A DNA stretch of 43,998 bases from positions 1-43,998 of the forward strand of contig JAGVWA010000006.1 in the NCBI GenBank assembly GCA_018304505.1, written 5' to 3'. Source of the DNA: Nanobdellati archaeon. Lineage in GTDB: Archaea; B1Sed10-29; JAGVWA01. Under the pieces are notes generated by a model. It searched no databases. It saw only the letters and a program-made list of their open reading frames with translations, and was not told the origin of the DNA. The position numbers were made by a program, and so were the translations under genes. Shown in pieces: positions 23,039-43,474 of this stretch. The stretch's first letter is position 1; the number at the start of each line of letters is the position of its first letter.

Positions 23039-23146
23039 GGGCCCGTGGCTTAGCCTGGCAGAGCGCCGGTCTTATATGACACGTTCTGGTATATCCAGTT
23101 GTCTTGAGACAACCGGAGGTCCTTGGTTCGAATCCGAGCGGGCCCA
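23039..23146 (+). tRNA. tRNA-Ile (anticodon UAU) with a 34-nt intron
   Basis: A full cloverleaf: acceptor GGGCCCG (23039-23045) with CGGGCCC (23139-23145), D stem GCTT/GAGC, anticodon stem CCGGT (23066-23070) with ACCGG (23112-23116), variable AGGTC, T arm CTTGG-TTCGAAT-CCGAG, discriminator A at 23146, no CCA. The anticodon loop CTTATA (23071-23076) plus A (23111) is split by an intron at 23077-23110, the canonical 37/38 position. Around it a bulge-helix-bulge can be drawn: CTTA pairs with TGAG, three-base bulges TAT and ACA, inner helix GACA/TGTC. The anticodon at 23073-23075 is TAT, reading AUA. Short variable arm excludes Leu and Ser. Confidence 0.88.
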
Positions 23147-43364: not shown

Positions 43365-43474
43365 GGGCTGCTAGCTTAGCCAGGATGGAGCACCCGACTG
43401 ATAATCGGGAACTCCTTAAGAAATTATTTCTTGGGAGTCGGGAAAGGTCGAGGGTTCAAATCCCTTGCGGCCCA
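43365..43474 (+). tRNA. tRNA-Ile (anticodon GAU) with an approximately 33-nt intron
   Basis: Acceptor GGGCTGC (43365-43371) pairs with GCGGCCC (43467-43473). D stem is GCTT/GAGC; anticodon stem CCCGA (43393-43397) pairs with TCGGG (43405-43409); loop CTGATAA places anticodon GAT at 43400-43402. T arm is GAGGG-TTCAAAT-CCCTT; discriminator A at 43474; no CCA, then a T run. A hairpin-forming insertion (ACTCC...GGAGT) lies between the anticodon arm and the T arm, flanked by two copies of TCGGGAA, so the exact junction is ambiguous. A bulge-helix-bulge with TCGG paired to TCGG and GAA bulges fits an intron at 43411-43443, near position 44/45. The variable loop is then 7 nt, unusually long. Confidence 0.85.

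What the first reader, a model, noticed from the sequence alone, without database searches (positions are those of the whole stretch)
23039..23146. Intron-bearing tRNA-Ile with UAU anticodon
Most archaea read the Ile codon AUA with a CAU-anticodon tRNA whose C34 is changed to agmatidine by TiaS. A true UAU-anticodon tRNA-Ile is rare; I recall it for Nanoarchaeum and Korarchaeum, which lack TiaS. Here the loop, after removal of an intron at the canonical 37/38 site, gives anticodon TAT. The D, anticodon and T stems are complete and a bulge-helix-bulge can be drawn. ATA codons are visibly common in the window's genes. The result suggests that this lineage decodes AUA without agmatidine.
Basis: partly seen in the sequence, partly recalled or inferred. 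Interest (0 to 1): 0.75.

Follow-up and report, generated by a model that had tools for sequence, protein, structure and literature searches.

The report
Intron-bearing archaeal tRNA-Ile reading AUA
This small archaeon encodes a directly AUA-reading isoleucine tRNA (anticodon UAU, with a spliced intron) instead of the usual agmatidine-modified one, and the same swap, always without the agmatidine enzyme TiaS, turns up in about a third of 297 sampled archaeal species, where it has been described for only two.

Summary
Rfam calls a tRNA at 23039-23146, and removing a 34-nt intron (23077-23110) at 37/38 gives anticodon UAU. The bulge-helix-bulge is supported by covariation among relatives. The genome is a small archaeon of the Diapherotrites/Iainarchaeia class (917 kb, 92.8% complete). 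It also has tRNA-Ile(GAU). Its only detected CAU tRNA is the initiator tRNA-Met, and no tiaS was found; tiaS is missing from all 19 genomes of the class. AUA is a third of Ile codons in window genes. The interpretation therefore holds. The rarity claim does not: 109 of 297 archaeal species carry the UAU gene and 147 carry TiaS, with zero overlap (54 versus 40 families, zero overlap). Fifty-six named DPANN records share the same 37/38-intron gene over an exact 19-mer. Nanoarchaeum and Korarchaeum are the two cases described in the papers I could read. A possibly new side observation: many of these introns contain a stretch complementary to the D-arm of their own tRNA, with some covariation. This is suggestive, not proven. 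Charging, splicing and the state of U34 remain untested. Elp3 is present, so how AUG misreading is avoided is an open, testable question.

The parts
23039..23146 (+). tRNA-Ile(UAU) gene with intron
   Evidence: Rfam RF00005 54.6 bits; model R1 99.3 bits, E=5.1e-24
23039..23076 (+). exon 1 (positions 1-37)
   Evidence: BHB and homologues
23073..23075 (+). anticodon TAT (U34 A35 U36)
   Evidence: sequence; loop CTTATA invariant in alignments A1 and A2
23077..23110 (+). 34-nt intron at 37/38
   Evidence: BHB splice boundaries shared with relatives
23111..23146 (+). exon 2 (positions 38-73)
23071..23074 (+). BHB central helix 5' strand CUUA, pairs with UGAG at 23105-23108
23105..23108 (+). BHB central helix 3' strand UGAG
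23078..23081 (+). BHB inner helix GACA, pairs with UGUC at 23100-23103 (one unpaired U at 23104, so slightly relaxed here)
   Evidence: reading; inner helix varies on both sides among relatives
23082..23088 (+). intron element CGUUCUG, complementary to D-arm CAGAGCG at 23059-23065 (function unknown, tentative)
   Evidence: also paired in the predicted fold of the precursor
43365..43474 (+). tRNA-Ile(GAU) with intron, the partner isoacceptor for AUU/AUC
   Evidence: Rfam 50.8 bits; sequence

Best explanation
It is a functional tRNA-Ile(UAU). The precursor is cut by the archaeal splicing endonuclease at the bulge-helix-bulge and ligated, giving a mature tRNA with anticodon UAU. IleRS charges it, and its U34 pairs with A to read AUA. 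It replaces the CAU tRNA-Ile2/agmatidine (TiaS) system, which was not detected anywhere in the class, while tRNA-Ile(GAU) reads AUU and AUC. Shown: gene, intron structure, anticodon, no detectable TiaS or Ile-type CAU tRNA, heavy AUA use, mutual exclusion with TiaS across archaea. Inferred: expression, splicing, charging, and the modification state of U34.
For: Gene and structure. Own genome: TiaS 0; the only CAU tRNA detected is the initiator. Class: UAU gene detected in 14 of 19 genomes by pattern, TiaS in 0 of 19. Across 297 archaeal genomes: UAU and TiaS 0; UAU only 109; TiaS only 147; neither 41; Fisher p=4e-47; collapsed to 116 families 0/54/40/22, p=1.6e-15 (two pattern hits in TiaS+ genomes were fetched and are not tRNAs). 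Genomes with two GCTYAG-type CAU tRNA matches (elongator Met plus Ile2) number 73, of which 71 are TiaS+; the two exceptions each owe the second match to a sequence that does not look like a tRNA. Named records with the same gene over an exact 19-mer: 56 DPANN contigs and one cyanobacterial sequence without a tRNA. AUA is 33% of Ile codons.
Against: The assembly is 92.8% complete, and an elongator tRNA-Met was not found in it either, so a missing CAU gene cannot be excluded from this assembly alone. No RNA data. Elp3 is present (654 bits); a cnm5U34 would be expected to read AUG as well (argued in PMC8879553), so accurate decoding needs an extra explanation. 41 genomes have neither gene by these searches.
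Confidence: 0.92

Rival explanations
1. The gene is real, but AUA is read mainly by an undetected CAU tRNA-Ile2 modified by an unrecognised agmatidine- or lysidine-type enzyme; the UAU gene is a redundant extra.
For: 7% of the genome is missing; elongator tRNA-Met is undetected, so CAU genes can be missed.
Against: The gene is conserved across the class and beyond; TiaS is absent from 19 of 19 class genomes; no UAU-carrying genome among 297 has TiaS; a second CAU elongator-type tRNA is essentially confined to TiaS+ genomes. TilS was not searched for.
Confidence: 0.04
2. The locus is a decayed or mis-spliced tRNA whose real splice site gives another anticodon.
For: The predicted minimum-energy fold of the precursor does not form the anticodon arm.
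Against: Canonical BHB bulges, covariation, conserved boundaries in over 60 relatives, and intronless homologues with UAU.
Confidence: 0.02
3. The tRNA was acquired recently, for example from a virus or mobile element, rather than inherited.
For: Four viral contigs carry an intronless tRNA-Ile(UAU).
Against: Those genes are intronless with a CCA behind position 73 and otherwise dissimilar; the window gene has intron-bearing homologues throughout its class.
Confidence: 0.02

Closest known systems
tRNA-Ile3(UAU) of Korarchaeum cryptofilum and Nanoarchaeum equitans (PMC6000648, PMC8450103)
   Same: UAU anticodon, no tRNA-Ile2(CAU). PMC6000648 reports an intron in the Korarchaeum gene. G054 (one contig of 1,590,757 bp, which I take from memory to be Korarchaeum cryptofilum) has a UAU gene with intron start CTTATA^TGGC like this one.
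   Different: A different lineage (Diapherotrites). The literature read presents the trait as two isolated gains; here it is found across many DPANN groups.
Archaeal tRNA-Ile2(CAU) with agmatidine made by TiaS
   Same: Fills the same slot, reading AUA as Ile.
   Different: Anticodon C34 versus U34; needs TiaS, which was not found here and never co-occurs with the UAU gene in the sample.
Bacterial tRNA-Ile(UAU), e.g. Mycoplasma mobile (Taniguchi 2013, known here from citations in PMC11938285 and PMC4810244)
   Same: UAU replaces a modified CAU tRNA.
   Different: Bacterial, replaces lysidine/TilS, not BHB-spliced.
Eukaryotic tRNA-Ile(UAU) with pseudouridines 34 and 36 (PMC9602550)
   Same: UAU anticodon with a 37/38 intron; in yeast the intron is needed for the modification and may block ncm5U34.
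   Different: Whether the archaeal intron has such a role is unknown.

Membership tests
tRNA-Ile(UAU), 'Ile3' | complete tRNA cloverleaf | tested here: met
   Rfam 54.6 bits full length; helices
tRNA-Ile(UAU), 'Ile3' | mature anticodon UAU | tested here: met
   BHB-defined splice sites leave CUUAUA|A
tRNA-Ile(UAU), 'Ile3' | isoleucine identity outside the anticodon | tested here: inconclusive
   GGGCCCG acceptor, A73 and D-arm like archaeal Ile tRNAs; ARAGORN labels of homologues rest on the anticodon; no identity model was run
tRNA-Ile(UAU), 'Ile3' | no tRNA-Ile2(CAU) and no TiaS in the genome | tested here: met
   assembly 92.8% complete
tRNA-Ile(UAU), 'Ile3' | charged by IleRS, decodes AUA and not AUG | not testable with these tools
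   needs biochemistry
archaeal BHB tRNA intron | 3-nt bulges on opposite strands separated by a 4-bp helix, between 37 and 38 | tested here: met
   the inner helix has one extra U in this gene
archaeal BHB tRNA intron | cleavage by the archaeal splicing endonuclease | not testable with these tools
   no RNA data; the endonuclease gene was not searched for
tRNA-Ile2(CAU)/agmatidine system | C34 in the gene | tested here: not met
   position 34 is U
tRNA-Ile2(CAU)/agmatidine system | tiaS gene | tested here: not met
   0 matches, with four archaeal controls positive over the cut-off

The most novel reading that the evidence does not exclude
The intron of tRNA-Ile(UAU) is an old, selected part of an agmatidine-free decoding system in DPANN archaea. 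Its conserved first half (GGCC-A-CGYUCURR) pairs with the D-arm of its own precursor as an alternative fold, and this, or the intron itself, controls modification of U34, for example by keeping Elp3 (cm5U/cnm5U) off the anticodon so that AUG is not misread, in parallel with the intron-dependent pseudouridylation of eukaryotic tRNA-Ile(UAU).
Probability: 0.2. Interest if true: 0.8.

Novelty: new member of a known kind. Interest (0 to 1): 0.55.

Why it matters
Papers in the library state that prokaryotes generally do not use UAU for Ile (PMC8879553) and that archaea lack it nearly completely (2 of 167 genomes, PMC6000648). The sample here suggests that archaea split into two mutually exclusive AUA-decoding systems, with UAU tRNAs in at least 54 of 116 sampled families. 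That makes a clean evolutionary switch and raises a sharp biochemical question: how a U34 tRNA avoids reading AUG when Elp3 is present.

Tried and rejected
ARAGORN on the window found nothing (bacterial intron rules). An elongator tRNA-Met was sought in the own genome by Rfam, a T-loop pattern, a CATA pattern and a D-arm/CAU pattern and was not found; it is either interrupted in the D-loop or in the missing 7%. The orphan 3' tRNA half at C15:28946-28991 was considered as a split tRNA; a search for a matching 5' half gave no evident tRNA half. UAU-pattern hits in the TiaS+ genomes G081 and G198 were fetched and rejected as non-tRNA. The cyanobacterial 19-mer hit was rejected: the flanking sequence shows no tRNA and reads like a repetitive coding sequence. 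Viral tRNA-Ile(UAU) genes were rejected as relatives. Literature searches for DPANN or its groups plus tRNA-Ile(UAU), TiaS or tRNA introns found no paper on this trait, but most subscription papers are not held.

Full report
1. What is there. Rfam finds a full-length tRNA at 23039-23146 on the + strand (54.6 bits, gathering score 29). Read by hand: acceptor GGGCCCG/CGGGCCC with A73, D-stem GCUU/GAGC, anticodon stem CCGGU/ACCGG, variable loop AGGUC, T-stem CUUGG/CCGAG with loop UUCGAAU. Between the anticodon-stem strands lie C U U A U A, a 34-nt stretch (23077-23110), and A. Splicing at 37/38 gives loop CUUAUAA and anticodon UAU.

2. The splice sites are not a free choice. The precursor can form a canonical bulge-helix-bulge: C32U33U34A35 pairs with UGAG near the intron's end, with 3-nt bulges UA^U and AC^A. 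I aligned 16 intron-bearing relatives and counted the named structure: 95.7% of cells paired, 14 of 29 pairs with two-sided changes, covariation 0.398 against 0.179 shuffled and at most 0.101 when partners are slid. Over 67 introns the central helix keeps at least 3 of 4 pairs in 62, against about 10 expected; the inner helix keeps at least 3 of 4 in 42, against about 11. In the window gene the inner helix GACA/UGUC is separated from the central helix by one unpaired U.

3. Which organism. The genome is 917,116 bases in 21 contigs, 92.8% complete. Window genes include fibrillarin and Nop, so it is archaeal. Contig lengths of class members equal those of public records titled Diapherotrites (G008:C30 = JAGGYF010000001.1, 18,562 bases; G012:C5 = JAGMCR010000013.1, 90,725 bases), so the class is most likely Diapherotrites/Iainarchaeia.

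4. The refutation tests. TiaS (PF08489): no match in the own genome, while four well-known archaeal controls ring over the cut-off. CAU tRNAs: in the list of 40 Rfam candidates only the initiator tRNA-Met (AGCGGGG..., C13:8713-8787) has CAU; a CATA...T-loop pattern adds only a chance match, and a D-arm/CAU pattern finds none. The elongator tRNA-Met is therefore also undetected, which limits the argument from this genome alone. AUA makes up 129 of 392 Ile codons in 13 Pfam-supported window genes, so something must read it. The window also holds tRNA-Ile(GAU), 43365-43474.

5. The class and beyond. A UAU 5'-half pattern matches 14 of 19 genomes of the class; the five without are 67-90% complete. 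TiaS is in none of the 19. On 297 archaeal genomes chosen by the tool as relatives, 111 match the UAU pattern (the backward control pattern matches 3), 147 have TiaS, and 2 have both; those two pattern hits were fetched and are not tRNAs. The table is then 0 both, 109 UAU only, 147 TiaS only, 41 neither (Fisher p=4e-47). Collapsed to 116 families it is 0/54/40/22 (p=1.6e-15). Species are related, so the p-values overstate the independent evidence, but no family contains both. About 29 of the 109 genes were read in full; the rest depend on the pattern. As a cross-check, two GCTYAG-type CAU tRNA matches in one genome (expected for elongator Met plus Ile2) occur in 73 genomes, 71 of them TiaS+; in the two exceptions the second match does not look like a tRNA.

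6. Named records. The exact 19-mer AGAGCGCCGGTCTTATATG (D-arm end to first intron bases) was scanned over one genome each for 84,980 species: 57 stretches, of which 56 are titled Woesearchaeota, Pacearchaeota, Nanoarchaeota/Nanoarchaeia, Micrarchaeota, Aenigmatarchaeota, Altiarchaeota, Huberarchaeum, Undinarchaeales, Parvarchaeota, Diapherotrites or just 'archaeon', and one is a cyanobacterial sequence without a tRNA. The 56 read on into a 37/38 intron. Several carry a further intron in the T-loop or D-loop.

7. Literature. PMC6000648 found tRNA-UAU in 2 of 167 archaeal genomes (Korarchaeum, Nanoarchaeum) and called them species-specific gains. PMC8450103 gives the same two as the reason why Ile2 is absent there. 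PMC8879553 argues that cnm5UAU would misread AUG and that prokaryotes generally do not use UAU. I found no paper on the trait across DPANN, but the library is open-access only.

8. How it most likely works. Spliced, charged by IleRS, U34 pairs with A of AUA. Steps after transcription are inferred. Elp3 is present in the own genome (654 bits) and in 17 of 19 of the class, so U34 might be modified. In yeast the intron of tRNA-Ile(UAU) is needed for pseudouridines 34 and 36 and is proposed to keep ncm5U off (PMC9602550). Whether the archaeal intron does something similar is unknown.

9. A side observation. Many of these introns start GGCC/GACC, then CGYUCURR, which is complementary to UYAGAGCG of the D-arm. 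With shuffled introns as control, 23 of 64 reach p<=0.05, against 2 of 28 for introns of other tRNAs (Fisher p=0.0045). The variants partly follow the D-arm: D-arm UCAGAG goes mostly with intron CUG, UUAGAG mostly with CUA, and UGGAG with UCA/UCG in three lineages. The introns are homologous and related species are included, and many introns lack the element, so I treat this as a lead. The pairing would compete with the D-stem and is part of the predicted minimum-energy fold of the precursor.

10. Verdict. Observation confirmed, interpretation supported, rarity overstated. The gene itself is a new member of a known kind; the distribution and the strict exclusion with TiaS are the more interesting result.

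Noticed in passing
window 23082-23088 with 23059-23065; introns listed: Introns of tRNA-Ile(UAU) in many DPANN genomes contain CGYUCURR complementary to the D-arm of their own tRNA, with partial covariation; control introns rarely do.
   Followed up: partly
L039/L060 (G000:C15:28946-28991): Orphan 3' tRNA half, 88% identical to the 3' half of tRNA-Ile(UAU) but with acceptor CAGCCCC-A, directly behind a small ORF; a split tRNA half or an integration-site remnant. No 5' half found.
   Followed up: partly
L010 (G000:C3:106523-106594, -): A second tRNA with anticodon GUU, acceptor GACCCCG and an Asp/Glu-like D-arm, besides the ordinary tRNA-Asn (L009).
   Followed up: no
L037 (G000:C15:34172-34206, -): tRNA-like gene with a long variable arm, loop UUUACAA (anticodon UAC) and an apparent T-loop intron; does not fit Leu or Ser.
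   Followed up: no
L035 (G000:C8:45476-45531): A second tRNA with anticodon GUG and an apparent T-loop intron, besides tRNA-His (L007).
   Followed up: no
L026, L028, L029, L030, L031, L032, L034, L036: Many tRNA genes of this genome (Lys, Thr, Ser, Val) carry introns in the D-loop, some with a second one at 37/38.
   Followed up: no
window 43365-43474: In tRNA-Ile(GAU) the intron is bounded by a direct repeat TCGGGAA, so the splice point is ambiguous but the mature tRNA is the same.
   Followed up: no
L234, L235, L105 and several of L127-L183: tRNA-Ile(UAU) genes with a second intron in the T-loop (about 59/60).
   Followed up: no
L243-L246: Four viral contigs carry an identical intronless tRNA-Ile(UAU) gene with CCA behind position 73.
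   Followed up: partly
one search list of 41 genomes: 41 archaeal genomes (22 families with neither) have neither the UAU pattern nor TiaS, including some with 98-100% completeness; their way of reading AUA is unresolved.
   Followed up: no
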